NCBI RefSeq assembly: GCF_001898115.1
Contig: NZ_MKSQ01000008.1
Span: forward strand, 223,390-287,389
Direction: 5' to 3'
Source of the DNA: Allobosea sp. 67-29
Lineage (GTDB): Bacteria > Pseudomonadota > Alphaproteobacteria > Rhizobiales > Beijerinckiaceae
Length of the DNA: 64,000 nucleotides
The notes beneath the pieces were generated by a model, which worked only from the letters and a program-made list of their open reading frames with translations, was not told where the DNA came from and ran no database searches. Positions 6,751 to 61,350 of the stretch are shown one piece after another (the first letter of the stretch is position 1; each line of letters starts with the position of its first letter). Position numbers and translations under genes: made by a program.

Positions 6751-6757
6751 GAGCGCT

Positions 6758-8199: not shown

Positions 8200-8273
8200 G
8201 CAGTTGCCGGAACAGGAGAGGCTGGAGCCCGCCGGCCTCTCCGGGCCGACGGGAACGGATCAGGACTGCCGGC

Positions 8274-9047: not shown

Positions 9048-9259
9048 GGTGCCTCCCGCAAGGTCGAAGGCGCCGCCGCACTGTTGTGATCTTCCCCAGC
9101 GGCGCCCCGTGCGCACAGATTGGGCGCAGTTCGATGGTGCCCGCAAGAGGGCAGGCGCGGCTTTTGAAGGCGAAGCCGCTGAAATATGGCGCAGGGTAAG
9201 CCGCTGTTCCGGCTGCCCAAAAGGCTGCCGGGCCATTGTCCATGCGGCGAAAGTCGAGG

Positions 9260-10465: not shown

Positions 10466-10664
10466 CGTCGGGGGCTTTCGGAAAGGGCTCGGGCGCGATG
10501 CTGCGCCGCAACATCAAATAGGCGCGACAGGGACGTCATGACAACCGTCGAATCCCTCTCCACGCATGTCCCGCACGCATACCGCACTGCAGCAAGCTCG
10601 CGGTCTCCCGCTGTGCCGCAGCAGGCTATAGGATCGGCGTTCCCACTCCGCTCGCGAGAAGCGC

Positions 10665-11336
10665 ATGCTGCCCTGGACCGTGCTCGACACCGCCGATCTG
10701 CCCGATGGCAGCGGCACGCTGCGGCTGAAGCAGCGCGGCGGCGAGTTCTCGATCATGCTCGGCAGCAACGAGTTGATGAACAGCAGGCTGAGCGGGTCGG
10801 AGGAAGCGCTGGCGCGGCTGGCCTGCGAGCGCCTGCGGCAGCGCCCCCCTTCCCTGCTCATCGGCGGGCTCGGCATGGGCTTCACGCTGCGCGCGGCGCT
10901 CGCCGCGCTGCCGGACGCGGCGACGATCGAGGTGGCCGAGCTGATCCCGGCCGTGGCCGGCTGGGCGCGCGGGCGGATGGCACCGGTCTTCGCGGGCTGC
11001 CTCGACGATCCGCGGGTGACATTGACGATCGGCGATGTGGCCGCGGTGATCGCAGCCGGCCGGGCTCGCTATGACGGCATCCTGCTCGACGTCGACAACG
11101 GTCCGGAAGGCTTGACCGTCGCAGCCAACGACCGGCTCTACGGCCTTGCGGGCCTCGGCGCAGCCAAGGCGGCGCTGCGCCCGGGCGGCGTGCTGGCGGT
11201 CTGGTCCTCGGGCCCGGATCACGGCTTCACCCGCCGGCTGCGGGATGCCGGCTTCGCCGCAGACGAGATCTCAGTGCGCGCGAGCCGCTCGCGCCGGGGC
11301 GCGCGCCATGTGATCTGGCTCGCGACCCGCCGCTGA
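10665..11336 (+). CDS. spermidine synthase-like SAM-dependent methyltransferase-fold protein
   Basis: A 223-residue protein resembling a truncated spermidine synthase. SLLIGGLGMGFTLRAAL is the nucleotide-binding glycine loop, ATIEVAELIPAV holds the acidic residue that binds the ribose, and YDGILLDVDNGPEG sits where polyamine synthases have the catalytic D-x-x-D region. It lacks the full N-terminal beta domain of true spermidine synthases, so it may be an aminopropyltransferase-like protein or an unrelated methyltransferase. Monocistronic, divergent from the MFS gene with about 200 bases between them. Confidence 0.78.
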   Translation: MLPWTVLDTADLPDGSGTLRLKQRGGEFSIMLGSNELMNSRLSGSEEALARLACERLRQRPPSLLIGGLGMGFTLRAALAALPDAATIEVAELIPAVAGWARGRMAPVFAGCLDDPRVTLTIGDVAAVIAAGRARYDGILLDVDNGPEGLTVAANDRLYGLAGLGAAKAALRPGGVLAVWSSGPDHGFTRRLRDAGFAADEISVRASRSRRGARHVIWLATRR

Positions 11337-11378
11337 ACGGAGATCGGAGGGCGGGCTGCGAGACCTCTCCCGAGCGCG

Positions 11379-12155
11379 CTACGGCAACCGGCAGAGCCCT
11401 TCGCAGCCGGGCTTGCCCGCGGCCGCCACGAAGGTCGACACCGCTTTTTCCGCGGCAGGCTTCAGGACCGGCTTGGCCGCGTGCAGCGCCGTGACCAGCG
11501 CCTTGCGGTCCGGCGGGGCGATGCCGGCCACGACGGACGCCGCGCTCTCCGCGAGTGCATTCGCCAGCAGCGTCTGGTTGGGCTCGCGCAGCGCGGGATT
11601 GCGCAGCAGCAGAACGGCGCCGGAAACGATCTCCAGCAGGCCGAGCCGCATCTTGCGCAGCCCCTGGATGCGCTCCTCCGTCCGCTCCTCCTTCTTCAGA
11701 TGGGCGTCGAAATCGTTGACGGCCTCCACGGAGGCGGCGATCGCCTTCAGCAGGAAGGCACGCGAGCGGACAATCTCGTCCTGGTACTCTACCGTGTTGC
11801 GGGCAGAATCCGGCGCCTTGCCCGGATCGGGCGAATAGAGCTCGTAAGCCTGCAGAACGCGCGTCTGCTTCTGCACGATATTGAGGAGCCCCGGGACGTC
11901 GGCAGCCGTATACGGCCCCTTGCCCAGGATCGCGGCTTCGTTCCAGACATCCTCCAGCACCTTGCCGTCGACCGGATCGGCCAGGCGCGGCAAACCGCCC
12001 TTGCCCCGCTCGACCTTGATCATGCTGTCGAGGGCGTCGACCGAAGCGTCGATATAGGCCGAGCCGTTGGGCGGCACCTCGGCGCGCGCCGCGAAGCCGA
12101 GCAGGCACACGCCGCCGATGGCGGCGATCCGGGCTATCGAACGTCGCATCATCAT
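11379..12155 (-). CDS. periplasmic helical protein of unknown function, coupled to the ureohydrolase gene
   Basis: A 258-residue protein with a signal peptide (hydrophobic core IAAIGGVCLLGFAARA, cleavage near residue 23). The mature part is largely helical with charged segments such as KKEERTEERIQGLRKMRLGLLE and no motif I recognise; two cysteines (CEGLC) sit near the C-terminus. ATG 12155 overlaps the upstream stop codon by four bases and is preceded by AGGAAAAGGAAG; two further ATGs follow at once (12152, 12149). Tight coupling to the ureohydrolase suggests a related role, but the evidence is position only. Confidence 0.75.
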   Translation of the reverse strand: MMMRRSIARIAAIGGVCLLGFAARAEVPPNGSAYIDASVDALDSMIKVERGKGGLPRLADPVDGKVLEDVWNEAAILGKGPYTAADVPGLLNIVQKQTRVLQAYELYSPDPGKAPDSARNTVEYQDEIVRSRAFLLKAIAASVEAVNDFDAHLKKEERTEERIQGLRKMRLGLLEIVSGAVLLLRNPALREPNQTLLANALAESAASVVAGIAPPDRKALVTALHAAKPVLKPAAEKAVSTFVAAAGKPGCEGLCRLP

Positions 12156-13204
12156 GGTCTTCCTTTTCCTGCAGCGCGCGCCTCGGCCAGCAGGCAGAGT
12201 TCGGTGAAGAGCACCTGCGCCGCGCATTGCGCCGTATTGCTCGTGGAATCGTATTGCGGCGCGACCTCGACGACGTCGGCGGCGACGATGTCTCGTCCCT
12301 TCAAGCCGCGCAGGATCGCCAGCGCCTCGCGCGGCGTCAGCCCGCCGACCTCCGGCGTGCCGGTGCCCGGCGCAAAGGCCGGGTCGAGCGAATCGACATC
12401 GAAAGAGACATAGGTCGGGCCGTCGCCGATGACCGCCAGCGCCTTCGCGATCACGGCTTCGAGGCCGAGATCGTCGACCTCATTGGCATGGATCACCGTC
12501 ATGCCGGACTCATAGGAGAACTCCCAGAGGTACTCCGCCCCGCCCCGGATGCCGATCTGAATGACGCGCTCGGGGTCGAGCACGCCGTCGAGCACCGCCT
12601 GCCGGAAGGGCCCGCCGTGATGGAATTTCGAGCCCTCGTAGGGGCCGGACGTGTCACAATGGGCGTCGATGTGGACCATGCCGACCGGGCGCCTGGCGCC
12701 GACCGCCCTGAGGATCGAATAGGTGATCGAATGATCCCCGCCGACCGCCAGCGGCGAGACGCCGGCCTCGACGATCGTGCGGAAGGTCGCCTCGATATCC
12801 TCGTGGCAGCTTTCCAGCGAGTAGCGGGAGCGGAAGGGCACGTCGCCGATGTCGGCCGCCTTGACCATGCCGAACGGCGCCGTGCCGAGGACATGGTCCA
12901 TGGGCCCGATGCGCTCGATGGCGCGCACCGCGCGAGGCCCGAGCCGCGTGCCGGCGCGATTGGTCACGCCCAGATCCATCGGCAGGCCGATGATGGCGAC
13001 GTCGAGCCCGCCGAGGTCCGCCTTGGACAGCGCATCGGGCCGGTAGGGAGCACCGATGAAGGTCGCGACGTCGGCGAAGGGCCATTTGCGCCTGTCGCCC
13101 TGGAACTGGTCGGCCGCGACCTTGGCGAAGCGAGGATCGTGAATGTCGCCGCCGCTCGCCCCGGCGTAGCGCGCCCGAAGCTTCCCGAGCTTGTCCTGAT
13201 CCAT
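12152..13204 (-). CDS. speB: agmatinase-family ureohydrolase
   Basis: A 350-residue member of the arginase/agmatinase family, which hydrolyses guanidino compounds to urea and an amine at a binuclear Mn (or Ni) centre. The metal motifs are complete: GGDHS, HIDAHCDT and SFDVDSLDP, with YLWEFS and TGTPEVGGL nearby. Agmatine is the usual substrate, but guanidinobutyrate, guanidinopropionate and guanidine hydrolases share these motifs, and the roughly 40-residue N-terminal extension before the core (DPRFAKVAADQFQG...) is longer than in minimal SpeB proteins. Cytosolic. Translationally coupled to the periplasmic protein downstream. Confidence 0.88.
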   Translation of the reverse strand: MDQDKLGKLRARYAGASGGDIHDPRFAKVAADQFQGDRRKWPFADVATFIGAPYRPDALSKADLGGLDVAIIGLPMDLGVTNRAGTRLGPRAVRAIERIGPMDHVLGTAPFGMVKAADIGDVPFRSRYSLESCHEDIEATFRTIVEAGVSPLAVGGDHSITYSILRAVGARRPVGMVHIDAHCDTSGPYEGSKFHHGGPFRQAVLDGVLDPERVIQIGIRGGAEYLWEFSYESGMTVIHANEVDDLGLEAVIAKALAVIGDGPTYVSFDVDSLDPAFAPGTGTPEVGGLTPREALAILRGLKGRDIVAADVVEVAPQYDSTSNTAQCAAQVLFTELCLLAEARAAGKGRP

Positions 13205-13240
13205 TAGTGTCTCCCTCGCGGCACGCCCGCAACCGAGGCG

Positions 13241-13753
13241 TCAGCCGGCCCGACGCTCGAGCATGGTCACCGGCGAATCGTGATAGCAGGCAGACCCGAA
13301 GGGTGTGTACCCCAGTTTGGCGGCGACGCGCAGCGAAGCGGCGTTTTCCGGCGCGATGATGCAAACCGTGCGCTGGTGCCCGAAGGATCGCTCGAACCAG
13401 TCATGCGCCACCAGGCCCGCCTCGGTCGCATAGCCCCTGCCCTGCACGTCGCGCGACAAGACCCAGCCGGCCTCGGGAAACGGGTCGAACGAGGTGCCCA
13501 GCCCGCGATGGGCCTGCATCAACCCGGCCTCCCCGACCAGGCGCCCGCTCGCCCGCTCGATCACCGCGAAGAAGCCGTAGCCGAGAAGGGCCCAGTTGCC
13601 CGCGCTGCGCGTCAGCCTTTGCCAGGCCTCCTCGCGCGACAGCGGCTTGCCGCCGATGAAGCGCACCACCGCCGGGTCGGAACGCATCCGGTGGATCGCA
13701 TCGAGATCCTCGCGGGAGGGGCGGCGCAGGAGGAGTCGCTCTGTCTCGATCAT
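13241..13753 (-). CDS. GNAT acetyltransferase (RimJ/RimL-like)
   Basis: A 170-residue N-acetyltransferase of the Acetyltransf_3 type. It opens with IETERLLLRRPSREDLDAI, the usual first strand and helix of RimJ/RimL proteins, and has the acetyl-CoA loop in VQGRGYATEAG and the late NAASLRVAAKLGY motif. Target (protein N-terminus or small amine) cannot be predicted. It sits 36 bases upstream of the ureohydrolase gene on the same strand and may share its promoter. Confidence 0.85.
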   Translation of the reverse strand: MIETERLLLRRPSREDLDAIHRMRSDPAVVRFIGGKPLSREEAWQRLTRSAGNWALLGYGFFAVIERASGRLVGEAGLMQAHRGLGTSFDPFPEAGWVLSRDVQGRGYATEAGLVAHDWFERSFGHQRTVCIIAPENAASLRVAAKLGYTPFGSACYHDSPVTMLERRAG

Positions 13754-13954
13754 GCCGTCCTTAAACCAGCACGGCCGCCGCGAGCCAAGGCCGCGACGAC
13801 CGGCATGAGAACCGCTTCCGCTACGGCGGTTTAGCCGAAAGTCTCAGTCCAGGCGGTTGAATCCCCTCGCGATTCATGCAGCCTTCGGCTAGAACCCCGG
13901 CGCATGCTCGGCATGTGCCGCGTCGCGCCCGTACAAGCTCGAAAAATCGAGTGA

Positions 13955-15061
<1,107 letters not shown>

Positions 15062-15099
15062 CGCGCTCGACAGCCGGGTCCTACCGGCGGGAAACCCCA

Positions 15100-49744: not shown

Positions 49745-51025
49745 CTAGCGTCCGCCGTGCCGCCCAACGAACGCGAGGGCGGCAGCCCAGGCGCCGTCAT
49801 TGGCCTCGGCATTGGCAGCGGGCGTGCCGCCCATCGTCGTCGCGATGCCCGAGACCGGATGGCGATGGGCGATGCGGGTCGAAGGCACATGAGGGAAAAG
49901 GATGGAGTGGCCGGCAGCCGGCCAGTTCTTCCACACGACCTCATGCGGATGACCGGCGGCGAGCAGGCTCGACTGCACGATGAGCGAGTAGAGGTCCGAA
50001 GGCCAGGCGCCATCGTCGCCGCCGGAAATCAGCAGGACAGGGCCGGCGATCCGCTCGACCGGGATGCGGGCGCGGGCCATGGCGGCGGGATCACCCAGAG
50101 CCGTGCGCATGGCGTCGGCGTTGCGACGAAACTCCTTCGCTTCGTCGTAAGGCTTCCAGCTCGCGGTGAGATTGTCCTGCCATTGATGGACGAGCGGCTT
50201 TCCATCGAGCGTCCAGCACGGACCGTCGCGACCGAGCCCGGGAGCGGGATCCGCCGCTGCCTGCCCGCCATGCACGAAGGCGCTCGGCACATAGCCCAGC
50301 ACCGCCGAGACCCTGTCGGGGAAGGTCGCGCCGAGCAAGAGCGCGAGCTCGCCGCCGCGCGACTGCCCGGCAACGGCGACAAAATCATTCAGCGGGCGCA
50401 CCGTCGCATGCAGCCAGTCGAGAGCGCGGGCGAAATATTCGAGCGGTGTGTTCGAGATGTATCTCGGCAGGCCCGGCGCGCCGAAATAGCCGAGTGCCAG
50501 CGCCGCAACGCCGCGCGAGGCCCAGAGCGCCGCGCGCGGCTCGTTGATGCCGCCACCCGAGCCGTTGAGGATCATGATGGCAGGATGCGGGCCCTCGCCA
50601 GCCGGCAGGAACAGCGTGCCGACGAGGCCGTCCTCGATCAAGGGCCGGCGGGTGACGCCGTCGGCCATCAGAATCTGGGTGAAGCTGCCGGAAGCCACGG
50701 TCGCGCCGCCGATGGAGGCTGTGAGCGTGGTCTCGAGCGGCCGCGCCATGTCGGCGTGGAAGAACTCGCCCTCGCCTTCCTGTGCCCAGATCAGGCCCAT
50801 GGCGGCGACGCCTTGGTAGGCTCCCCGCACCGGAGCGTCCCGCGTCAGGTCGACGGCGCCACCGCCGTCCGCAACGAAGACCGCTTCCGCCCGCCAGAGC
50901 CGACCATCGCGCGGGGTCTCCGCAGCGATGGTCACCTCCGCGCCCGTCGGCAAGCCGGCCAGCACGATCCGGCGCGGCACGTCGATCAGATCGACCGAGG
51001 GACTGACCGTGAAGCTCGCGGCCAT
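49745..51025 (-). CDS. acyl-CoA thioesterase/BAAT family hydrolase
   Basis: A 426-residue protein with the two-domain plan of bile acid-CoA:amino acid N-acyltransferases and acyl-CoA thioesterases. The N-terminal beta domain has PRDGRLWRAEAVFVADGGGAVDL and GLIWAQEGEGEFF. The C-terminal alpha/beta hydrolase has VAGQSRGGELALLLG with a serine nucleophile, ISGGDDGAWPS with the acid, and AAGHSIL with the histidine. No signal peptide, so cytosolic. It ends the ten-gene operon, 40 bases after the binding protein gene, and would hydrolyse a CoA thioester or ester of the imported compound. Confidence 0.9.
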   Translation of the reverse strand: MAASFTVSPSVDLIDVPRRIVLAGLPTGAEVTIAAETPRDGRLWRAEAVFVADGGGAVDLTRDAPVRGAYQGVAAMGLIWAQEGEGEFFHADMARPLETTLTASIGGATVASGSFTQILMADGVTRRPLIEDGLVGTLFLPAGEGPHPAIMILNGSGGGINEPRAALWASRGVAALALGYFGAPGLPRYISNTPLEYFARALDWLHATVRPLNDFVAVAGQSRGGELALLLGATFPDRVSAVLGYVPSAFVHGGQAAADPAPGLGRDGPCWTLDGKPLVHQWQDNLTASWKPYDEAKEFRRNADAMRTALGDPAAMARARIPVERIAGPVLLISGGDDGAWPSDLYSLIVQSSLLAAGHPHEVVWKNWPAAGHSILFPHVPSTRIAHRHPVSGIATTMGGTPAANAEANDGAWAAALAFVGRHGGR

Positions 51026-51065
51026 GGCGGTTTCCGTCTCCCTTACGTCCGGGTTTCCAGCCCCG

Positions 51066-52637
51066 TCACTTCGCCTTGCTGACCTGCATGGCGACGGTGC
51101 GATCGCTGTTCCAGGGCACGACCTTGAGGTCAGGCCGGCTCGCCCAGATGTTCTTGTAGTGGTAGAGCGGGATGACGCCGACATCGTCCATCACGACCTT
51201 GACGGCGTCCTTGATGATCGCCTCACGCTTGGCATCGTCGAATTCAGCCCCGGCCCTGGCGAGGGCATCGTCCAGCTTCGGGTTGCCGTAGCGGCCCCAG
51301 TTCGAGGCGCCGAGTCCCTTGGCGGGGTCGTTGGTGGCGAGGATCGAGGTCATCGCATAGGTGCCCTCGCCGGTGCCGTTGCCCCAGCCGATCATGCTCA
51401 TCGCATATTCGTTCTTGTTGGCGCCGGAGACATAGACCGAGAAGGGCACCACCTCGACCTGGGTCTCGACGCCGATGCGGGTCCAGAACTGGGCGACCGC
51501 CTGAGCCGTCTCCGGCGCCAGCGGATAGCGCTCGCCCGGCACATGGATGGTCAGCTTGAAGCCGTCCGGATAACCGGCTTCGGCGAGAAGCGCCTTGGCC
51601 TTGCTCGGATCGACGGCGATCTTGGCGTAGTCGGGGTTGTAGCCGAAGGTGTCGGCCGGCATCCATTGCGTCGCGACGGTGACGCCGCCGCGGGCGACAC
51701 GGTCGGCGATGGCGTCGCGGTTGATCGCCATGTTGAGCGCCTTGCGGACGCGCACGTCGAGCAGCGGATTCTTGTCGAGCGGCTTGCCGGCCTTGTCGGT
51801 GATGAACTTCGAGGGAGCCGGGTTGAAGCTCGGCTGCAGGATCAGCACGCGCAGGCCGGGATAGGACCAGACCTTCACCCTGGGGTTCTTCTCGAGCTTC
51901 TCGATGTCGGAGAAGGAGACCTTGTCGATCATGTCGACATCGCCGGAGAGCAGCGCCGCGGTGCGCGCCGCGGGATTGGCGATGTAGCGATAGCTCACCT
52001 TGTCCCACTGGGCCTTCGGCCCCCAGTAGGTGTCGTTGCGCTTCATCTCGATACGGTCGCCGGGGGTGTAGCTGACGAAGGCGTAGGGGCCGTCGGTGAC
52101 CATCGCCTTGCCGCTGTTGTAGTCGTCGGTCGTCGCGGTCTGGCCGACATGCCTGCTGACGACATAGATGCTGGAGAGGTTGATCGGCAGCAGCGGATCG
52201 GGCGCCTTGGTGGTGATGACCAGCGTGTGCGGATCCTTGACCTCGACCTTGGCGACGCTGCGCAGGAAACTCTTGAAGCTCGCCACCGATCCCGGAACGC
52301 TCTGCGCGCGCTGATAGGAGAACGCGATATCGTCTGCCGTCACCGGCTGGCCGTCGGTCCAGACCGCCTTGTCGCGGATCTTGAATTCCCAGGTGGTGGG
52401 CGAGGTGTTCTTCCAGGACTCGGCAAGGCCCGGAACCATGCCGCCGATCGTCTTCTGCGCGACGATCGCCGGAAAGAAGTGCTGCGCCACCGAATGGTCG
52501 CCGGCATAATTGTTGAGCTCGGGGTCGATCGCGGAGACCGGATCGGCGAAGCCGATGCGCAGATCCTCGGCCCAGGCGGTCCCTCCCGCGACGATCAGTG
52601 CCGCGGAAAGGGCAAGCGTGCTCAGTCTTGTCGTCAT
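51066..52637 (-). CDS. peptide/nickel-type ABC transporter binding protein
   Basis: A 523-residue family-5 solute-binding protein with signal peptide (LSTLALSAALIVAGGTAWA). The domain opens LRIGFADPVSAIDPELNNY and has WEFKIRDKAVWTDGQPVTADDIAFSYQRA, the family core, then VRKALNMAINRDAIADRVARGG. It overlaps the upstream ATPase stop by four bases. Placement near the end of the operon is unusual, since binding proteins normally come first. The context recalls a family I know as SBP_KPN_01854, associated with AhpD-like Avi_7169/Avi_7170 proteins; ligand undetermined. Confidence 0.92.
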   Translation of the reverse strand: MTTRLSTLALSAALIVAGGTAWAEDLRIGFADPVSAIDPELNNYAGDHSVAQHFFPAIVAQKTIGGMVPGLAESWKNTSPTTWEFKIRDKAVWTDGQPVTADDIAFSYQRAQSVPGSVASFKSFLRSVAKVEVKDPHTLVITTKAPDPLLPINLSSIYVVSRHVGQTATTDDYNSGKAMVTDGPYAFVSYTPGDRIEMKRNDTYWGPKAQWDKVSYRYIANPAARTAALLSGDVDMIDKVSFSDIEKLEKNPRVKVWSYPGLRVLILQPSFNPAPSKFITDKAGKPLDKNPLLDVRVRKALNMAINRDAIADRVARGGVTVATQWMPADTFGYNPDYAKIAVDPSKAKALLAEAGYPDGFKLTIHVPGERYPLAPETAQAVAQFWTRIGVETQVEVVPFSVYVSGANKNEYAMSMIGWGNGTGEGTYAMTSILATNDPAKGLGASNWGRYGNPKLDDALARAGAEFDDAKREAIIKDAVKVVMDDVGVIPLYHYKNIWASRPDLKVVPWNSDRTVAMQVSKAK

Positions 52638-53655
52638 GCGATCTCTCCTGTTGGCGCGCGGCGTTCCCCTTCGGGCGCGTCGTTGAGGTGGCAGGCGGAA
52701 CGATGGCCCGGCGCGATCTCGCGCAGGGCAGGCCGCTCGATGCGGCAGCGGTCGAAGGCGACCGGACAACGCGGGTGGAAATGGCAGCCGGGCGGCGGCG
52801 CGGCCGGGCTCGGGATCTCGCCCTTGACGGGAGCATAGACCCGGCGCCGCTGCTTGAGGTCGGGAATCTCGGCCAGCAGCCCCTGCGTATAGGGGTGATT
52901 GGGATGGGCGAAGAACTGACGCGCCGGCGCGTCCTCGACGATGCGCCCGAGATACATGATGACGACGCGGTCGGCGACATGCTGCACCACGCGCAGATCG
53001 TGGCTGATGAACAGATAGGTCAGGTCGAGATCGCGCCGCAGTTGCATGAACAGGTTGAGGATCTGCGCCTGGATCGAAACGTCGAGCGATGCGACCGACT
53101 CGTCGCAAACGAGAAAGCGCGGCTGCATAGCCAGTGCACGCGCGATCGAGATGCGCTGACGCTGGCCGCCGGAAAACTGATGCGGGAAGCGCTGGCGATA
53201 GGCCGGGTCGAGGCCGGCACGGCGCATCTGGGCGCAGACATAGTCATCGAGTTCGGCGCGGCCGACAATGCCATGGACGAGGGGCGCCTCGCCGATCGCC
53301 GAAGCGACGCGCATGCGCGGATTGAGGCTCGCCTGCGGATCCTGGAAGATGAGCTGCACGTCGCGATGGACAGAGCGGTCGCCCTGCGGGTCGCGCCCGA
53401 ACACGCTGACGGCACCATCGCTCGGCGACAGCAGCCCGGCGGCGATGCGCCCGAGCGTCGACTTGCCCGATCCGGACTCGCCGACCAGGCCGACGAACTC
53501 GCCCGTCGGGATCGTGAGATCGATACCGTCGAGCGCGTGGATGACGGGCCGCCGCCTGGCGAGATGCAGTCTGACCGCAAGCCCCTCTGCGCGGCCGAAG
53601 CGGCGACTCACATTGCGCGTCTCCAGCGCCGGAGCGGTGGTGGTAGGCTTCGTCG

Positions 53656-53659
<4 letters not shown>
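52634..53659 (-). CDS. peptide-type ABC transporter ATP-binding protein (DppF/OppF)
   Basis: A 341-residue ATPase with Walker [30 protein letters not shown], signature FSGGQRQRISIARAL and Walker B FLVCDESVASLDVS. The C-terminal Oligo_HPY extension has PNHPYTQGLLAEIP and CHFHPRCPVAFDRC, with the cysteines that form an Fe-S cluster in Dpp/Opp ATPases. The Walker B glutamate is followed by SVASLD, normal for DppF types. Coupled by ATGA overlaps on both sides. Confidence 0.94.
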
Positions 53660-54641
<982 letters not shown>

Positions 54642-54645
<4 letters not shown>

Positions 54646-55541
54646 CGCAGCGCCCTCGGGTCGAGCACTTCCCGCAACCGGTCGCCGACGAGATTGATCG
54701 CGACGATCGCCAGCAGCAGCGTCAGGCCCGGGAAGAAGCTGATCCAGTACTCTCCGGAAAGCATGAACTGGAAGCCGTTGGCGATCAGCAGGCCAAGCGA
54801 GGGCTGCGTCACCGGCGCCCCCAGCCCGAGGAAGGAGAGCGTCGCCTCCAGGGTGATGGCGCGCGCCACCTGCAGCGCCGCGATGACGAGCAGCGGCGGC
54901 AGGCAGTTGGGCAGGACATGGCGCAGCAGGATGCGGTAGGTCGGGAGGCCGAGCCCGCGAGCCGCCTCGAAATAGTCGCGCTTGCGTTCGACCAGCGCCT
55001 GGGCGCGGGCGGTGCGGGCGTAATAGGCCCATTCCAGCAGCACCAGCGTCAGCACGACATTGCCGATGCCGCGGCCGAGCAGCGCGAGCATCAGCAGGGC
55101 GACGAGGATCGAGGGCAGCGACATGATCAGGTCGACGAGCCGCATGATCAGCGCATCGACGATGCCGCCGCTCCAGGCTGCGATCAGCCCGAGCAGGATA
55201 CCGAGGATGCCGGCCAGCAGCGCCGAGCCGACGCCGACGGTCAGGCTGGTGCGCAGGCCGTAGAGGATGGCGGAGAACAGGTCGCGGCCCTGCCCGTCCG
55301 TACCGAGCCAATAGGTGATATCTCCGCTCATCGACGCCGAGCCGGGGGGCAGCCTGGCGTCGAGCACGTCGATCGCGGCCAGATCGAAGGGGTTCTGCGG
55401 CGCGATTTCGCGGGCGAAGACCGCGCCGAGAATCAGCAGCGCCATCAGGGCGAGCCCGATCACGGCGGTCGGCGCGCGCAGGAAGCGGCGCAGCGCGGTG
55501 ACTGCCGGACGGCGGCCGGAGGCGACGGGAGCGCTCGTCAT
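54642..55541 (-). CDS. peptide-type ABC transporter permease (DppC)
   Basis: A 299-residue inner-membrane permease with an N-terminal OppC-type helix ([17 protein letters not shown]), the domain phrase [27 protein letters not shown] in the variant [11 protein letters not shown], and the EAA loop [23 protein letters not shown]. Five to six helices. Starts inside the DppB stop (ATGA) and forms the channel with it. It follows DppB in the order found in dipeptide operons. Confidence 0.94.
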
Positions 55542-56512
55542 GCCGAGGCCTCCTCGCGGACACGCGGATCAAGGATGCGATAGAGGATGTCGACGACGAG
55601 GTTGATGACGACGAAGAGCGTCACCACCACGAGCAGGTAGGCCATGACCACCGGCCGGTCGAGCGCGTTGATGCTGTCCAGGATGAGCTTGCCCGAGCCC
55701 GGCCAGGCGAAGATGCTCTCGGTCACGACCGCGAAGGCGATGGTCGAGCCGAGCTCGAGGCCGAGCACCGTGACAAGCGGGATCATGATGTTGCGCAGGA
55801 CGTGCATCATCACGATCCGGCCGCGACGCAGGCCCTTGGCCCGCGCGAAGCGGACATAGTCGAGCGGCAGCACCTCGCGGACGCCGGCCCGCGTCAGCCG
55901 GATCACCAGCGAGACCTTGAAAAGCGACAGGTTGATTGCCGGCAGCAGCATGTGCCGCCAGCCGTTCAAGGTCAGGAACGACCAGTCTGCGCCGAGAAGA
56001 TGGACCGTCTCGCCGCGCCCGCTCGCTGGCAGCCAGCCGAAATAGACGCTGAAGGTCATGATCAGCAGGAGACCGACCCAGAAGGTCGGCAGGGAGAAGC
56101 CGAGGATGCTGCCGGTGGTGATCAGCTTCGAGAGGCGCCGTTCCGGGTAGAGACCCGCATAGAGGCCGAGCGGCACGCCGAAGATGACGGAAAAGGCGGT
56201 GGCGGCGATGGCGAGCTCCAGCGTCGCCGGCAGGCGCTGCAGGATCAGCGTGACCGCCGGGACGTTGTAGACGAAGCTGCGGCCGAGATCGCCTTGCAGG
56301 GCGCTGCCGGCGAAGCTGAGATATTGCTGCCAGAGCGGGCGGTCGAGCCCAAGCTGGGCGATGAGTTCGGCTCTGTCGGCCTGCGTCGCGTCAGGCGCCA
56401 GCAGGATGTCGGCCGGGTTGCCGATGGCATGCATGCCCAGGAACACGACGAGCGACATCGCCACGATGACGAGGAGCGCCTGCGCGACGCGCTGGAGCAG
56501 CCAACCCAGCAT
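55538..56512 (-). CDS. peptide-type ABC transporter permease (DppB)
   Basis: A 324-residue inner-membrane permease with LQRVAQALLVIVAMSLVVFLGMHAIGNPADIL at the N-terminus, LGLDRPLWQQYLSFAGSALQGDLGRSF, and the ATPase-contacting loop YVRFARAKGLRRGRIVMMHVLRN. ATG 56512 begins in the stop codon of the upstream flavin enzyme gene (TGATG); the longer open frame is out of register with that gene. Six helices. Confidence 0.94.
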   Translation of the reverse strand: MLGWLLQRVAQALLVIVAMSLVVFLGMHAIGNPADILLAPDATQADRAELIAQLGLDRPLWQQYLSFAGSALQGDLGRSFVYNVPAVTLILQRLPATLELAIAATAFSVIFGVPLGLYAGLYPERRLSKLITTGSILGFSLPTFWVGLLLIMTFSVYFGWLPASGRGETVHLLGADWSFLTLNGWRHMLLPAINLSLFKVSLVIRLTRAGVREVLPLDYVRFARAKGLRRGRIVMMHVLRNIMIPLVTVLGLELGSTIAFAVVTESIFAWPGSGKLILDSINALDRPVVMAYLLVVVTLFVVINLVVDILYRILDPRVREEASA

Positions 56513-57957
56513 CAGACCGGCACCGCTGTCTCTTCCGGCAGGATCGGTACCCATTCGTCGCCGAAGATTTCCGGCTCCGCATAGGCCTGGCCGCGGGCGA
56601 AATGCGTCTCGACATCCTCGACGAACAGCCGCGCGGCGATCGCCTGCGAGAGACGCTCGGCCCCGTCGCTGATCGCCGGAATGTCGCCCGAGACCGTGCC
56701 GTGGGACATCATCGCCGGGTAGCAGAAGCAGTGCACCCGCTCGAGGCCCGGGCTGGCGCCCGGCACCTTCGGCTGAAACTCGAAGGCGGGGCCGAGATCG
56801 GGCATGGCGCCAAGGCTCGGCTCGGCGTCGCCGGGCATGTCGCGGTCGCTCCAGAAACGGGCCTGCGCAGCGATCTCGGCAAGGAAAGGACGATTGTCCC
56901 AGTCGACCTTGAAGCCGGTCGAGAAGATCATGAAGTCGAAGCGCATCGTCCCGGCGCTGGTCTCGACCACGATGTCTTCGCCCTCCATTCGCGCCGACAG
57001 CAGCGCCGTTCCCTGCCGGAAGAAGGCATTGGGATGGCGCGAGACACGCAGCACGCTGGCGCGCGGCGGCGGCACCTGCTCGCGGGCGACATAGCCGTTG
57101 ATCCGCCATTTCCAGTCATCGGGCAGATAGCGGTAGCCGGCCACGGAGCCGGGATGGCCCATGCCCTTGCCGCGGTTGATGCGCGGGATGTCGCGGCGTC
57201 GGATCAGGAGGTCGACACGGGCCGCGCCGGCCTCCAGGGCGGTGCCGGCGCTATCCATGGCCGAGGCGCCCGCACCAACCACCGCGACGCGCTTGCCGCG
57301 CAGCGAGGCATAATCGTTCTCGTCGGAGGAATGCGCCCAGCGCTCGCGCGGCAGGCTCTCGGCGATCGCCGGCACATAGGGGCCGCCAAGCCCGTCGCGG
57401 CCGGTCGCCAGCACGACATGCCGCGCCAGCACGCGCTGCCGGCCAGCCGGGCCATCCATCTCGAGCGTGGCGTAGTCGGCGCCGAGATGGATAGCGGCGA
57501 TGTCGTGCCGGTTGCGGATGTCGAGATTCAGCACCGCGCGGAACCAGCGCAGGTAATCCATCCACATCAGCCGGGGAATCTTGTCGAGCGCCTCCCAGTC
57601 CGCGGCGCCGAACTGGGCCTCGAACCAGGCGCGGAAGGTCAGCGAGGGGATGCCGAGCGCCGGGCCGGTGAGCGTCTTGGGCGAGCGCAGCGTCTCCATG
57701 CGCGCCGTCGTCGCCCATGGACCTTCGAAGCCGCGCGGCCGGCGGTCGTAATTCACCACGTTCAGGCCGAGATTGCGCATGGCGGCCGCCGCCGCGAGCC
57801 CGGCCATGCCGGCGCCGATGATGGCGACGTCGAGCAGCCGCTCGCCCCCCACCTCACGCTCGGGCACCCAGGGCGCTGCCGGCAAGGTGAGCAGCTCTAG
57901 CTCGCGGGCGACGCGGCGGTTCAGCACCTCCAGCCCTTCGATATTCGGATCGGCCAT
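56512..57957 (-). CDS. FAD/NAD(P)-dependent monooxygenase-like oxidoreductase
   Basis: A 481-residue soluble flavoprotein. An N-terminal extension of about 45 residues precedes the FAD motif VAIIGAGMAGLAAAAAM, and a second Rossmann motif VAVVGAGASAMDSAG binds NAD(P)H. Between them are RMETLRSPKTLTGPALGIP and VLATGRDGLGGPYVP, a layout like flavin-containing and lysine/ornithine N-monooxygenases. The classical FMO fingerprint is not exact, so hydroxylation, N-oxidation or Baeyer-Villiger activity are all possible. Overlaps LysR and DppB stops by one base each. Likely oxidises the imported substrate. Confidence 0.88.
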   Translation of the reverse strand: MADPNIEGLEVLNRRVARELELLTLPAAPWVPEREVGGERLLDVAIIGAGMAGLAAAAAMRNLGLNVVNYDRRPRGFEGPWATTARMETLRSPKTLTGPALGIPSLTFRAWFEAQFGAADWEALDKIPRLMWMDYLRWFRAVLNLDIRNRHDIAAIHLGADYATLEMDGPAGRQRVLARHVVLATGRDGLGGPYVPAIAESLPRERWAHSSDENDYASLRGKRVAVVGAGASAMDSAGTALEAGAARVDLLIRRRDIPRINRGKGMGHPGSVAGYRYLPDDWKWRINGYVAREQVPPPRASVLRVSRHPNAFFRQGTALLSARMEGEDIVVETSAGTMRFDFMIFSTGFKVDWDNRPFLAEIAAQARFWSDRDMPGDAEPSLGAMPDLGPAFEFQPKVPGASPGLERVHCFCYPAMMSHGTVSGDIPAISDGAERLSQAIAARLFVEDVETHFARGQAYAEPEIFGDEWVPILPEETAVPV

Positions 57958-58925
57958 CACAGCCGCGCCTCCTGTTTGGTCAGCGATGCGAGGAGCGCCT
58001 GATGCTCCTCCGGCGGGATCAAGGTGAAATCGTCGAGCCGGCGCTCGGCCGCGTTCTGCATGGCCGCGATCAGTTCGCGCGCCTTGTCCGGCACCGCGAC
58101 GCCGCGCGCGGTCACCGCACCGAAGCAATAGGGGATCGCTTCGGCCAGCGGCAGGATTCGAATGCCGGGCAGCGTGTCGGCTGTCAGCGTCAACGGCTCG
58201 ACGATGGCGATGCCCGCCCCCGCCCGGATGAAGGAGAGCGCGTTCATCGTCGAGGTCGTGCGAACCTTGACGCGAACATCGACGCCCGCGGCATCGAGAG
58301 TGGCACGGATGCGGGCCGGAACGCCCCGGCGCAGCGACATCCCGACGAGATTGCGCCCCGCGAGCGCGCGCAGCTCCACCGGGCCATCGGCACGCGCGAG
58401 CGGATCGTCCTCCCGCACCGCCAGCACGCAGGGCGCCGTCCCCAGCCATTCCAGAACTAGGTCCCGATGCAGCAGCGGCGCGCTGGTCGCGCCGATCTGG
58501 GCATTGCCGGAGATCACGGCATTCTGCACGCGGTCCGGGTTTTCCACTTCGACCATGAGACGCGGCGCGTCGGCTCCCTCGCCGGCCGCCTGCCAGGCGT
58601 CCGTCAGCAGACCGAAGGCAAGCGCGGACACCGCCGAGATGCGGATCGGTGGCTCGGCCTCGCCGACGATCTCGCGGGCGCGCTCCCAGAGGTTGACGAA
58701 GCCGGCGAGCGCCCGCTCGACGTCATCGCGCAGAACCATGCCCTTCGGCGTCAGCACCAGGCGCTGGCCGGCCCGCTCGAACAAGGGCTGGCCCAGATCG
58801 CGCTCCAATTCCTGGATCATGCGGCTGACCGAAGGCTGGGACACGCCGAGATGCTTCGCCGCCGCAGTGACGCTGCCGAGCGAGGCGACCTGCAGATAGG
58901 CCTCCAGGATCTTGAGGCGGCTCAT
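57957..58925 (-). CDS. LysR-family regulator of the import/oxidation operon
   Basis: A 322-residue LysR protein. The winged helix is LKILEAYLQVASLGSVTAAAKHLGVSQPSVSRMIQELERDLGQPLFERAG, followed by the inducer-binding domain (VRISAVSALAFGLL-like segment PPIRISAVSALAFGLL; VKVRTTSTMNALSFIRAGAGIAIVEPLTL). Unlike most LysR genes it lies inside, and in the same direction as, the operon: its stop overlaps the next start (TGATG). It should sense the substrate or an intermediate, and its own synthesis may rise with the operon. Confidence 0.93.
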   Translation of the reverse strand: MSRLKILEAYLQVASLGSVTAAAKHLGVSQPSVSRMIQELERDLGQPLFERAGQRLVLTPKGMVLRDDVERALAGFVNLWERAREIVGEAEPPIRISAVSALAFGLLTDAWQAAGEGADAPRLMVEVENPDRVQNAVISGNAQIGATSAPLLHRDLVLEWLGTAPCVLAVREDDPLARADGPVELRALAGRNLVGMSLRRGVPARIRATLDAAGVDVRVKVRTTSTMNALSFIRAGAGIAIVEPLTLTADTLPGIRILPLAEAIPYCFGAVTARGVAVPDKARELIAAMQNAAERRLDDFTLIPPEEHQALLASLTKQEARL

Positions 58926-59029
58926 CCGGGGACGCTCCCACGCTTCTTCGAGCCGTGGAACTGCCCCAGCCTCCCGCTTTGGCGCATGTTCTTCATGCCA
59001 GCCGGTACCCAGCTTCGCTCGAGAAAGCT

Positions 59030-59611
59030 CTAATCGTCGTTGCGGACGGGGTCGCCCAAGACGTGCATCAGGCGGTTGGCCCAGCCGAACAGCGCCGTGG
59101 AGAGGATGAGATCGACGATCTCCGCCTCGCTCAGGCCGGCCTCGCGCAGACAGGCAGCATCGGCTTCGGTCACGGCCGGCGGCGTCTGCGACAGCTTGAC
59201 CGAGAAGTCGAAGATCGCCTGCTCGCGCGGCGGCAGCGCCGCCTTCTCGCCGCGAGCGAACAGCTCGTCCGTAACGGCGGTGTCCTTGGCGAGCTGGGCG
59301 TGGCGGGATGCATGCACCGCGGCGCAGTAGATGCAGCGGTTGACGATCGAAGCGCCGATCGCGCCGATCTCGCGCTCCGCCCGGCTCATACCGCCGGAAT
59401 CGTACATGATCGCGTTGAACAGCGGCGAGCGCACCGACAGCGTCTCGGGATCATGCGCCAGCACCAGCACGTAGTCCGACACCTTGGTGTTCGACGGCGT
59501 GATCTTGAGCGCCTCGCGCTGCTCGGGCGTAGCCTCGGCGAGATCGACCGGCGTGACCCGCGGGCGCCACTCGGGCACGGTACGGGTGAAGCGATGCACG
59601 ACCCGGCTCAT
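59030..59611 (-). CDS. alkylhydroperoxidase-domain protein (Avi_7169-like)
   Basis: A 193-residue AhpD-like protein. The active-site motif is complete: NRCIYCAAVHASRH gives CxxC followed by His, with an upstream Glu in RAEREIGAIGAS as proton relay. It therefore could reduce peroxides or disulfides. I recall a family named after Agrobacterium vitis Avi_7169 that travels with the adjoining CMD protein and a peptide-type ABC transporter, as here. ATG 59611 overlaps the upstream stop by four bases; the longer open frame is not coding. Confidence 0.88.
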   Translation of the reverse strand: MSRVVHRFTRTVPEWRPRVTPVDLAEATPEQREALKITPSNTKVSDYVLVLAHDPETLSVRSPLFNAIMYDSGGMSRAEREIGAIGASIVNRCIYCAAVHASRHAQLAKDTAVTDELFARGEKAALPPREQAIFDFSVKLSQTPPAVTEADAACLREAGLSEAEIVDLILSTALFGWANRLMHVLGDPVRNDD

Positions 59612-60087
59612 GCGGATTCTCCCTGCAGGATCGCGAGCCCGGCGAAAACGCGCGCCTGGTAGCTCATGAAGGCGTTCAGCTCGCACAAGCGGACGATATC
59701 GGCGTCGGCGACGCCGGCCGCCTTCAGCCCCTCGATGTCCTCTGCGGCTACAGCGCGCGTCTCGGCGGCGACCTTGTCCATGAAGGCAAGCACGGCCCTT
59801 TCGCGATCGTCCCGCCCGGCCGCCGAAGGCTCGGCGAGCGCCCGCAAAGCCGGATCCGAGACCCCTGCCAGATAGTGCCCGGCGATGTCGGCGAGACCAT
59901 TGAGATTGGCGATGCGCGCCGCCACGGCGAGGCGCCACCGCGCCGGGAAGGCGCCCGGATCATGTGGCGCCGTGACCGCCTCCTCCGCCTTTCGGCTCAT
60001 GGCGACGATGTTGCCGCGCGTCCGCGCCGCGATCCCCGCCAACGCACCTTGCCAGAGCGACGAATCCGAGCCGGCAGCTTCCGCCAT
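59608..60087 (-). CDS. CMD-domain protein (Avi_7170-like)
   Basis: A 159-residue helical protein of the carboxymuconolactone decarboxylase/AhpD fold. The region IVRLCELNAFMSYQARVFAGL occupies the active-site helix, but only one cysteine is present, so it lacks the CxxC of its downstream partner and may be a structural or substrate-binding subunit. It begins the operon; the promoter must lie in 60088-60293. Known to me as a partner of Avi_7169-like proteins. Confidence 0.85.
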   Translation of the reverse strand: MAEAAGSDSSLWQGALAGIAARTRGNIVAMSRKAEEAVTAPHDPGAFPARWRLAVAARIANLNGLADIAGHYLAGVSDPALRALAEPSAAGRDDRERAVLAFMDKVAAETRAVAAEDIEGLKAAGVADADIVRLCELNAFMSYQARVFAGLAILQGESA

Positions 60088-60293
60088 GATAATCCCCTTT
60101 GTGCATCAACCTGCAAAGTTGATACCTTGAGTGAATTAACTAGCCTCTTCGCGCCGTGTCAATCCGTCGCAGCATTCGCCGACCAGCGCGCGGCCGGTCA
60201 GCGCCGTTCGCCTTCCGGGAACGGCTTTCGACGATGATCCGATCGAATAAGTCGGGTTCAAGCCCGGGCGCGCTCCGCCCGAAACAGGATGGG

Positions 60294-61298
60294 TCAGGCG
60301 GCGTCGGCCGCACCCCACCCGCGCCGCGCGACATGGCCGACCGCCGCGCGCAGATCCGCCAGGCCCGCACCGACCTGGACGCAATGCTCGGCGAGGTGCC
60401 TGCGGAACAGCCGGGCGCCCGGACGGCCCGGAAACAGGCCGACGAGATGCCGCGTGAAGGCGTGCAGCCGGCCACCCCGCTGCAGATGGGCCGCAATATG
60501 CGGCTCCAGTGCATCGAGCATCGCGAAGGCGTCGGAGACCGGCGCCTCGCGGCCGAACAGCAGCGGATCGACCGCGAGCAGGATCTCCGGATTCTGATAG
60601 GCCTCGCGGCCGACCATGACGCCGTCGAGCCGTTCCAAATGCGGCAGCCACTCGGACGGAGCCCTGATGCCGCCGTTGATCGCGACCGGCAGGTCGGGAT
60701 TGGCTGCCTTGAGGCGATAGGCCCGCTCATAATCGAGTGGCGGGATTTCGCGGTTTTCTTTCGGCGAAAGTCCCTGCAGCCAGGCCTTGCGAGCATGGAC
60801 GATCAACCCATCGACGCCCGCCGTGCGAACCGCCGCGGTCAGGGCGTCGAGCGCGATTTCCGGGTCCTGATCGTCGACGCCGATGCGGCATTTCACCGTC
60901 ACGGGAACCGAAACCGCCGCCTTCATCGCGGCGACGCATTCGCCGACCAGCGCCGGCTCGCGCATCAGGCAGGCGCCGAAGGCGCCGCCCTGGACACGAT
61001 CGGACGGGCAGCCGCAATTCAGATTGATCTCGCCGTAACCGAAATCGGCGCCGATCCGCGCGGCTTCGGCAAGCAGTTGCGGATCGTTGCCGCCGAGCTG
61101 CAGCGCGACGGGATGCTCCATCGCGTCGAGGCCGATCAGGCGCTCCCGGTCGCCATGGATGACCGCGAGCGCCGTCACCATCTCGGTGTAGAGCAGCGCA
61201 TGGCGCGACATCAGGCGATGGATCGTCCGGCAATGCCGGTCGGTCCAATCCATCATCGGCGCGACGGAGAAGCGCATGGTCGGGAGCGGCGCGGTCAT
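60294..61298 (-). CDS. dusA: tRNA-dihydrouridine synthase A
   Basis: A 334-residue FMN enzyme that reduces uridines (U20/U20a) in the tRNA D-loop. Characteristic blocks: FSVAPMMDWTDRHCR, EINLNCGCPSDRVQGGAFGACLM with the catalytic cysteine, VKCRIGVDD, VHARKAWLQGLSPKENR and INGGIRAPSEWLPHL, DGVMVGREAYQNP for phosphate binding. GGGAG precedes ATG 61298. Cytosolic. Monocistronic between two ABC gene clusters. Confidence 0.95.
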   Translation of the reverse strand: MTAPLPTMRFSVAPMMDWTDRHCRTIHRLMSRHALLYTEMVTALAVIHGDRERLIGLDAMEHPVALQLGGNDPQLLAEAARIGADFGYGEINLNCGCPSDRVQGGAFGACLMREPALVGECVAAMKAAVSVPVTVKCRIGVDDQDPEIALDALTAAVRTAGVDGLIVHARKAWLQGLSPKENREIPPLDYERAYRLKAANPDLPVAINGGIRAPSEWLPHLERLDGVMVGREAYQNPEILLAVDPLLFGREAPVSDAFAMLDALEPHIAAHLQRGGRLHAFTRHLVGLFPGRPGARLFRRHLAEHCVQVGAGLADLRAAVGHVARRGWGAADAA

Positions 61299-61350
61299 GG
61301 CCGCTCCCCTATAGCATTCGGCCGGGTTTTGCACGCCCGGGCCGCCGCCC

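What the first reader, a model, noticed from the sequence alone, without database searches (positions are those of the whole stretch)
49745..60087. Ten-gene, largely overlapping operon for import and oxidation of an unidentified compound
CMD protein, AhpD-like peroxidase, LysR, flavin monooxygenase-like enzyme, DppB, DppC, DppD, DppF, binding protein and BAAT hydrolase all lie on one strand. Every junction from LysR to the binding protein is a 1- or 4-base stop/start overlap. The transporter, oxidising enzyme and thioesterase suggest uptake followed by oxidation and CoA-ester cleavage; the AhpD pair could remove peroxide or disulfide by-products. I recall Avi_7169/Avi_7170 and a matching ABC binding protein as a known association, but usually with a luciferase-like monooxygenase rather than this FAD/NAD(P) enzyme and BAAT hydrolase. 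LysR inside the unit and the binding protein near the end are both unusual.
Basis: partly seen in the sequence, partly recalled or inferred. Interest (0 to 1): 0.75.

Follow-up and report, generated by a model that had tools for sequence, protein, structure and literature searches.

The report
Import-and-oxidation operon, probably for organosulfur compounds
A soil bacterium carries a tightly packed set of ten genes that seems to import a small amino-acid-like molecule and oxidise it; its core of one flavin oxygenase plus two paired redox proteins recurs in many bacteria, sometimes beside cysteine-breaking enzymes, which hints at an undescribed way of using sulfur compounds.

Summary
Ten minus-strand genes (49745-60087) lie in the stated order, and the six junctions from LysR to the binding protein overlap by 1 or 4 bases. 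The gene set is kept in other Bosea and in Pseudochrobactrum; Paenochrobactrum has it without LysR. A single operator-like inverted repeat (ATCAA-N9-TTGAT) stands just upstream of CMD in all seven Bosea copies aligned.

The genes do not belong to the Avi_7169/Avi_7170/KPN_01854 families (below curated cut-offs). Members of that luciferase-type cassette occur in sister genomes, so this is a parallel module with an FMO-like monooxygenase in place of the luciferase-like one. The usual core is FMO, a CxxC-bearing AhpD and a CxxC-less AhpD-fold partner; the importer has been exchanged repeatedly.

In 30 of 91 FMO loci a cysteine desulfhydrase, cysteine-desulfurase-like enzyme, persulfide dioxygenase, TauE exporter or S/N-oxide reductase homologue is held. 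My best reading is oxygenation of an S-substituted, cysteine-type compound, with the AhpD pair reducing the product. Substrate, and S- versus N-oxygenation, remain unproven; the window and its 10-kb flanks hold none of these sulfur genes.

The parts
60157..60162 (-). TTGACA, candidate -35 element; TTGAC kept in 7 of 7 Bosea loci aligned
   Evidence: alignment, sequence; the consensus scan reports no sigma-70 site, so it is only a candidate
60105..60123 (-). inverted repeat ATCAA-N9-TTGAT, candidate LysR operator, 17 bases before the CMD start
   Evidence: 1 match in window (0.01 expected); conserved in 7 of 7 Bosea loci aligned; pattern extended by GCA has 1 match in the 4.86-Mb genome
59608..60087 (-). 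CMD protein, 159 aa: AhpD fold without CxxC (presumed non-catalytic partner)
59030..59611 (-). AhpD-like peroxidase-related protein, 193 aa, CIYC motif
   Evidence: PF02627, TIGR01926 205.6 bits over cut-off 81.8, CIYC
58926..59029 (-). 104-base spacer between AhpD and LysR; 1 base in the six other Bosea loci
57957..58925 (-). LysR-family regulator, 322 aa
   Evidence: PF00126 and PF03466
56512..57957 (-). flavin monooxygenase (FMO/N-hydroxylase-like), 481 aa
55538..56512 (-). DppB-type permease, 324 aa
   Evidence: PF00528, PF19300
54642..55541 (-). DppC-type permease, 299 aa
   Evidence: PF00528, PF12911
53656..54645 (-). DppD-type ATPase, 329 aa
   Evidence: PF00005, PF08352
52634..53659 (-). 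DppF-type ATPase, 341 aa
   Evidence: PF00005, PF08352
51066..52637 (-). family-5 solute-binding protein, 523 aa
   Evidence: PF00496 299.8 bits; nearest solved sequences 5u4o, AccA, heme-binding protein A, DppA
49745..51025 (-). BAAT/ACOT-type thioesterase-like hydrolase, 426 aa, Ser nucleophile motif
   Evidence: PF04775, PF08840; ACOT4 3k2i E 2.4e-41

Best explanation
A catabolic operon with its own LysR regulator. Shown by sequence: a complete Dpp-type importer, an FMO-like monooxygenase with FAD and NADP motifs, a pair of AhpD-fold proteins of which one has the redox CxxC and the other lacks it, and a thioesterase-like hydrolase, conserved as a unit. Inferred: the binding protein and DppBCDF import a small S-substituted, cysteine-type amino acid or peptide; the FMO oxygenates its sulfur (NADPH, O2); C-S cleavage or reaction with thiols leaves a sulfenate or mixed disulfide; the CMD-AhpD complex, using CIYC on AhpD, reduces it to the thiol; in relatives the released cysteine is broken down by Cds1 or a cysteine-desulfurase-like enzyme, with persulfide dioxygenase and TauE removing sulfur. 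In Bosea the BAAT hydrolase cleaves an ester or thioester of the carbon part.
For: The unit is kept in Bosea (62-93% identity) and Pseudochrobactrum/Paenochrobactrum (43-78%). FMO of at least 52% identity and AhpD of 142-160 bits occur in the same 13 of 61 genomes, near each other on one contig. AhpD is held in 75 and CMD in 69 of 91 FMO loci; a CxxC in 65 of 65 AhpD ORFs and 0 of 57 CMD ORFs. Sulfur genes: any of five kinds in 30 of 91 loci, and in 8 of the 18 Dpp-type ones. Cysteine-desulfurase-like enzyme in 21 of 91, with catalytic Cys and PLP Lys of one member aligned to SufS, against 4 copies in 192 whole genomes; Cds1-type desulfhydrase in 5 of 91, on three branches as I read the tree; persulfide dioxygenase plus TauE in 2 Rhizobium plasmids; BisC-like S/N-oxide reductase in 6 of 91. 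LysR-FMO-DppBC-DF-SBP plus BisC-like in L051/L055/L059/L060. Precedent: CmoO/CmoJ gives a sulfenic acid that must be reduced (PMC10863075, abstract and opening text).
Against: None of the sulfur genes lies in the window or its 10-kb flanks, nor in the seven Bosea loci L039-L044 and L048 as held; 61 of 91 FMO loci hold none. All the family calls behind them are under curated cut-offs: Cds1 553-560 vs 600, persulfide dioxygenase 519 vs 625 (one domain of a two-domain model), BisC 588 vs 1018, desulfurase-like 117 vs 475. The own genome has no Cds1 nor desulfurase-like enzyme at E <= 1e-60. The desulfurase-like gene also stands with an Lrp gene in genomes where this FMO was not found. The FMO model is nearest to N-hydroxylases as much as to FMO. 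Octopine-dehydrogenase-like genes (42 of 91, none Dpp-type) and Pot-type importers fit nitrogen chemistry. 16 of 92 FMO rows lack the AhpD partner; in G125 and G223 the pair stands without this FMO beside it.
Confidence: 0.4

Rival explanations
1. The FMO N-oxygenates an amine, opine-like secondary amine or polyamine-type amino compound, which breaks into aldehyde and hydroxylamine or nitrone products; AhpD deals with peroxide from uncoupled turnover; the hydrolase acts on the acyl part.
For: Model aligns over 346-388 residues with ornithine/lysine/putrescine/cadaverine-type N-hydroxylases (they also lead) and PF13434 scores 48.6 over its cut-off 21.3; Pot-type importers in 37 of 91 loci and octopine-dehydrogenase-like neighbours in 42 of 91.
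Confidence: 0.3
2. The AhpD pair is only protective: it scavenges H2O2 or organic hydroperoxide leaking from the monooxygenase, and the operon's substrate may be anything.
For: AhpD is a known alkylhydroperoxidase fold with CxxC; pairs follow unrelated oxygenases: FMO, luciferase-like and, in one genome, perhaps a TauD-like dioxygenase.
Against: The pair is specific (one CxxC and one CxxC-less subunit, overlapping genes) and tracks particular oxygenases; other, weaker AhpD homologues are already present in 55 of 61 genomes counting all matches.
Confidence: 0.2
3. A peptide or glutathione-conjugate uptake operon: the Dpp-type importer brings in cysteinyl peptides or conjugates and the FMO detoxifies the conjugate.
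For: Transporter type; peptidase-like neighbours M24 and alpha/beta hydrolase in L051/L055/L059/L060/L141.
Against: No peptidase in the window unit; most relatives have non-peptide importers; none of the listed peptide, nickel or glutathione importer models reaches its cut-off (best 25 per protein).
Confidence: 0.1

Closest known systems
LLM_KPN_01858 cassette (NCBIfam TIGR04027/TIGR04028/TIGR04029/TIGR04030)
   Same: Monooxygenase + CxxC-less CMD protein + CxxC AhpD protein with an ABC importer; in L144 also a family-5 binding protein
   Different: FMO-like FAD/NADP enzyme instead of the FMN luciferase-like one; CMD, AhpD and SBP all below cut-off; extra LysR and BAAT. Three genomes (G015, G023, G033) hold both kinds
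CmoO/CmoJ and YxeK/ScmK S-alkylcysteine salvage of Bacillus subtilis (PMC10863075, PMC9706529, PMC12757645)
   Same: Flavin monooxygenase operon for S-substituted cysteines; yxe includes an ABC importer; a sulfenic acid needing reduction in the Cmo pathway
   Different: Luciferase-type FMN enzymes (family recalled), N-acetyltransferase and deacetylase genes; the window unit has none of these
Peroxidase-related subfamily TIGR01926 (PDB 3c1l, 2prr, 2pfx)
   Same: AhpD fold, CxxC, 205.6 bits over the cut-off
   Different: Those structures are titled uncharacterised or putative; here the protein is paired with a CxxC-less fold partner and a monooxygenase
N-hydroxylating monooxygenases PvdA/SidA and S. 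maltophilia FMO
   Same: Fold and both dinucleotide motifs
   Different: 14-20% identity; no listed NCBIfam equivalog reaches its cut-off
Bmp8 tetrabromopyrrole debrominase (PDB 6ohi)
   Same: AhpD fold used for chemistry on a small molecule (from the PDB titles)

Membership tests
TIGR04027-04030 luciferase-type cassette | LLM enzyme of TIGR04027 | tested here: not met
   No luciferase-like protein among the ten genes; the oxygenase is FMO-like
TIGR04027-04030 luciferase-type cassette | CMD over TIGR04029 cut-off 100.75 | tested here: not met
   57.3 bits
TIGR04027-04030 luciferase-type cassette | AhpD over TIGR04030 cut-off 233.15 | tested here: not met
   153.7 bits
TIGR04027-04030 luciferase-type cassette | Binding protein over TIGR04028 cut-off 468.5 | tested here: not met
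   95.4 bits
Peroxidase-related enzymes TIGR01926 (AhpD protein) | Score over 81.8 bits | tested here: met
   205.6 bits; CIYC seen
AhpD-like redox proteins (CMD protein) | AhpD fold | tested here: met
AhpD-like redox proteins (CMD protein) | Redox-active CxxC | tested here: not met
   absent in the window protein and in 57 of 57 homologous ORFs examined
Two-dinucleotide flavin monooxygenases (FMO/NMO) | FAD GxGxxG, NADP GxGxSA and FMO/NMO fold | tested here: met
Two-dinucleotide flavin monooxygenases (FMO/NMO) | NADPH-dependent oxygenation of N or S | not testable with these tools
   needs enzyme assay
Dpp/Opp-type ABC importers | Two permeases, two oligo_HPY ATPases, SBP_bac_5 protein | tested here: met
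Dpp/Opp-type ABC importers | Peptide, nickel or glutathione specificity by NCBIfam equivalog | tested here: not met
   no cut-off reached among the models listed for the five proteins (best 25 each)
Type-I acyl-CoA thioesterase (ACOT/BAAT) | Bile_Hydr_Trans and BAAT_C domains over gathering scores | tested here: met
   82.3 over 27 and 87.4 over 20.9
Type-I acyl-CoA thioesterase (ACOT/BAAT) | Acyl-CoA hydrolysis | not testable with these tools
   assay needed; Ser in GQSRGG seen in sequence
S-alkylcysteine salvage (Cmo/Scm) | N-acetyltransferase and deacetylase in the operon | tested here: not met
   no such domain among the ten genes

The most novel reading that the evidence does not exclude
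A widespread, undescribed C-S-cleaving module: an FMO-type monooxygenase oxygenates S-substituted cysteine compounds, and a heteromeric AhpD complex (one CxxC subunit, one CxxC-less scaffold) acts as a dedicated sulfenate reductase on the product. Evolution has swapped both the oxygenase (FMO, luciferase-like, perhaps TauD) and the importer around this constant pair.
Probability: 0.25. Interest if true: 0.75.

Novelty: new variant of a known kind. Interest (0 to 1): 0.5.

Why it matters
Paired AhpD-fold proteins follow at least two unrelated kinds of monooxygenase but have no assigned job. If they reduce an oxygenation product, that would supply the reduction step in C-S bond cleavage and give a function to curated 'hypothetical equivalog' families (TIGR04027-04030) as well as to this FMO-type variant, found here in alpha-, beta- and gammaproteobacteria. 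The relatives' clusters with desulfhydrase, desulfurase-like enzyme, persulfide dioxygenase or S-oxide reductase give a short, testable list of substrates.

Tried and rejected
Membership in the Avi_7169/Avi_7170/KPN_01854 families: rejected on curated scores. 'Operon by chance of overlap': rejected by conserved order and overlaps. An opine-catabolism reading: the octopine-dehydrogenase-like gene is absent from the window and from all 18 Dpp-type loci; its 42 loci are Pot 33, amino-acid ABC 4, TRAP 2, tripartite 2, MFS 1; left as a rival through N-oxygenation. A consensus promoter scan found no sigma-70 site (0 found, 1.0 expected) and 2 terminator-like sites against 3.4 expected, neither after BAAT; the TTGAC-N17 element and inverted repeat are comparative evidence only. 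Sequence search of the FMO in PDB gave only weak hits, so folds were used. Papers: nine searches (I saw the listed rows only, one search found nothing) showed no paper on the TIGR04027-04030 families or this FMO-CMD-AhpD set; one search's single paper (PMC7194016, one passage) merely lists KPN_01858, beside TauC, among proteins changed by iron limitation in Klebsiella. The library lacks most subscription journals and preprints. PMC13352529 was searched for passages only and has no AhpD or peroxidase. DiatB, the listed fold match of highest identity (22-24%), could not be traced to a paper. A class-wide sample of 192 genomes gave mixed results: the FMO search (E <= 1e-85) hit 13 genomes, 15 places; the AhpD search (E <= 1e-40) hit 4 genomes, beside the FMO in G000 and G073 but on another contig than the weak FMO hit in G125 and G223; FMO relatives of 40-47% identity in four fetched loci (L159-L162) had no AhpD.
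Full report
WHAT IS THERE. The window lies in a 4.86-Mb genome of 29 contigs; the nearest named relatives of its FMO locus are Bosea. Ten genes run on the minus strand from 60087 to 49745: CMD (159 aa), AhpD (193), LysR (322), FMO (481), DppB (324), DppC (299), DppD (329), DppF (341), family-5 binding protein (523), BAAT-type hydrolase (426). The six junctions from LysR to the binding protein overlap by 1 or 4 bases; CMD/AhpD also overlap by 4; gaps of 104 and 40 bases precede LysR and BAAT.

IS IT A UNIT. A scan of one genome per species with the FMO confirmed 97 stretches, of which the best 80 were kept. All ten genes recur in the same order in the Bosea loci that are long enough (L039-L043, L048) and in Pseudochrobactrum (L045, L046); Paenochrobactrum L068 has nine, without LysR. 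L046 is titled Bacillus subtilis but closely matches L045 and is most likely contamination (inference). In the six other Bosea loci the AhpD-LysR gap is 1 base, so there CMD to the binding protein is one continuous series, apart from a 175-base gap in L043; the window's 104 bases are an oddity of this strain.

CONTROL REGION. Upstream of CMD the seven Bosea sequences diverge except for TTGAC[A/G], 17 bases, T[T/C][A/C]ATT, and the inverted repeat ATCAA-N9-TTGAT ending 17 bases before the CMD start. The repeat occurs once in the window (0.01 expected), in 11 of 162 loci held, all of them copies of this cluster from Bosea or the window's genus, and, extended by GCA, once in the whole genome. It has no match in the Pseudochrobactrum/Paenochrobactrum loci. 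Its place at or just after the expected transcription start suggests autoregulation by the LysR protein (inference); the generic promoter scan did not call a promoter here.

THE PAIR. AhpD belongs to the peroxidase-related subfamily (TIGR01926, 205.6 bits). The CMD protein has no Pfam match, but its model has the AhpD fold. Across the loci 65 of 65 AhpD ORFs carry a CxxC and 0 of 57 CMD ORFs do (in a few over-long ORFs the printed CxxC is not the motif). The luciferase-type cassettes show the same division in those I printed: 0 of 4 CMD proteins and 4 of 4 AhpD proteins have CxxC. A CxxC subunit with a CxxC-less partner, encoded with overlapping genes, suggests a heteromer (inference).

RELATION TO THE KNOWN CASSETTE. 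The window proteins score 57.3, 153.7 and 95.4 bits against TIGR04029, TIGR04030 and TIGR04028, under cut-offs of 100.75, 233.15 and 468.5, so the recalled family names do not apply. The real TIGR04030 family is over its cut-off in 5 of 61 related genomes, and in L144 the LLM, CMD, AhpD and binding protein all exceed their cut-offs (547.4, 199.8, 298 and 859.8). The window's is thus a parallel module with another oxygenase. Three genomes (G015, G023, G033) hold both kinds. In G125 the pair stands beside a TauD-like dioxygenase (292.5 bits, cut-off 313), perhaps a third partner; this is one case.

CO-OCCURRENCE. Among 61 related genomes, FMO of at least 52% identity and AhpD of 142-160 bits occur in the same 13, near each other on one contig; relatedness is not removed from this count. 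In 91 FMO loci AhpD is found in 75 and CMD in 69; in the 74 of at least 15 kb, in 62 and 58. Against this: 16 of 92 tree rows lack AhpD, and in an even sample of 192 genomes of the class AhpD occurs in 4, beside the FMO in 2.

IMPORTER EXCHANGE. Best same-strand importer within 6.5 kb in 91 loci: Pot 37, Dpp 18, none 15, TRAP 8, amino-acid ABC 7, tripartite tricarboxylate 5, MFS 1 (two of the 18 Dpp loci, L050 and L121, show only the binding protein). On the FMO tree these need 17 changes, Dpp alone 4 (quick tree, SH-aLRT only). LysR lies within 400 bases of the FMO in 24 of 91. In L051, L055, L059 and L060 the order is LysR-FMO-hydrolase-DppB-DppC-M24-DppD-DppF-SBP-BisC-like, so the window's layout is not unique.

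POINTERS TO SULFUR. (a) A cysteine-desulfurase-like class-V enzyme in 21 of 91 loci, with the PLP lysine and the catalytic cysteine of one member aligned to SufS; its presence changes 12 times on the tree. In 192 whole genomes only 4 copies were found; none of those 4 genomes has this FMO at E <= 1e-85, and in two of the three copies whose surroundings I read it pairs with an Lrp gene, so it is an independent unit that is often near the FMO. (b) A Cds1-type L-cysteine desulfhydrase (553-560 bits in the two tested; cut-off 600) in 5 of 91 loci; 4 changes on the tree, which I read as three branches plus the truncated L047; in the 61 genomes 4 of 13 copies adjoin the FMO, all four in one close group. 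(c) Persulfide dioxygenase and TauE-family genes on two Rhizobium plasmids, and a weaker dioxygenase homologue in L140. (d) A BisC-family S/N-oxide reductase in 6 of 91 loci (588 bits, cut-off 1018, in the one tested). In all, 30 of 91 loci (29 of 74 of at least 15 kb) hold one or more: Dpp 8 of 18, Pot 14 of 37, TRAP 5 of 8, amino-acid ABC 3 of 7, others 0 of 21. I had no matched set of random loci, so enrichment is judged only against the whole-genome counts. The window, its 10-kb flanks and the other Bosea ten-gene loci as held have none of them, which is the main weakness.

MECHANISM. Shown: composition, order, conservation, folds, motifs. Inferred: import, S-oxygenation, sulfenate or disulfide reduction by the AhpD pair, hydrolysis by BAAT. 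The nearest biochemical precedent is the B. subtilis CmoO/CmoJ pathway, where sulfoxidation and C-S cleavage yield a sulfenic acid that is then reduced (PMC10863075, abstract and opening text), and YxeK/ScmK for S-(2-succino)cysteine (PMC9706529 and PMC12757645, passages). Those operons use N-acetylation, absent here. AhpD-fold proteins can act on small molecules, as the debrominase Bmp8 shows (PDB title).

VERDICT. A real, conserved operon and a variant of a known but uncharacterised cassette, with an FMO/AhpD-pair core and exchangeable importers. The organosulfur reading is the best supported (0.4) but N-oxygenation is close behind (0.3). In the searches named in Tried and rejected I found no paper describing it.

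Noticed in passing
L137 (G000:C27:9001-29000), 7925-15063: A second FMO-CMD-AhpD module in the same genome (FMO 52%, AhpD 64%) with an octopine-dehydrogenase-like gene and what aligns with amino-acid ABC importers.
   Followed up: partly
L153 (G125:C112), 6113-9084: A CMD-AhpD pair beside a TauD-like dioxygenase and a convergent luciferase-like gene, without this FMO.
   Followed up: partly
L046: Record titled Bacillus subtilis SK6B4 carries a contig very like the Pseudochrobactrum cluster; probably contamination.
   Followed up: no
L113, L114, L100: FMO-CMD-AhpD followed by XRE-cupin regulator, octopine-DH-like, glycine C-acetyltransferase and threonine dehydrogenase genes, hinting at a beta-hydroxy amino acid product.
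   Followed up: partly
L142 2211-5941, L143 15935-19804: Large genes that look like hydantoinase/oxoprolinase A and B subunits (judged by eye, from no call) near the FMO module in two genomes of the window's genus.
   Followed up: no
window 60294-61334: tRNA-dihydrouridine synthase gene (Dus) directly upstream of the operon on the same strand; the DNA upstream of CMD differs in the other Bosea loci.
   Followed up: partly
window 50928-52838 (+): A 636-codon open frame antisense to the binding-protein and BAAT genes, most likely a by-product of high G+C.
   Followed up: no
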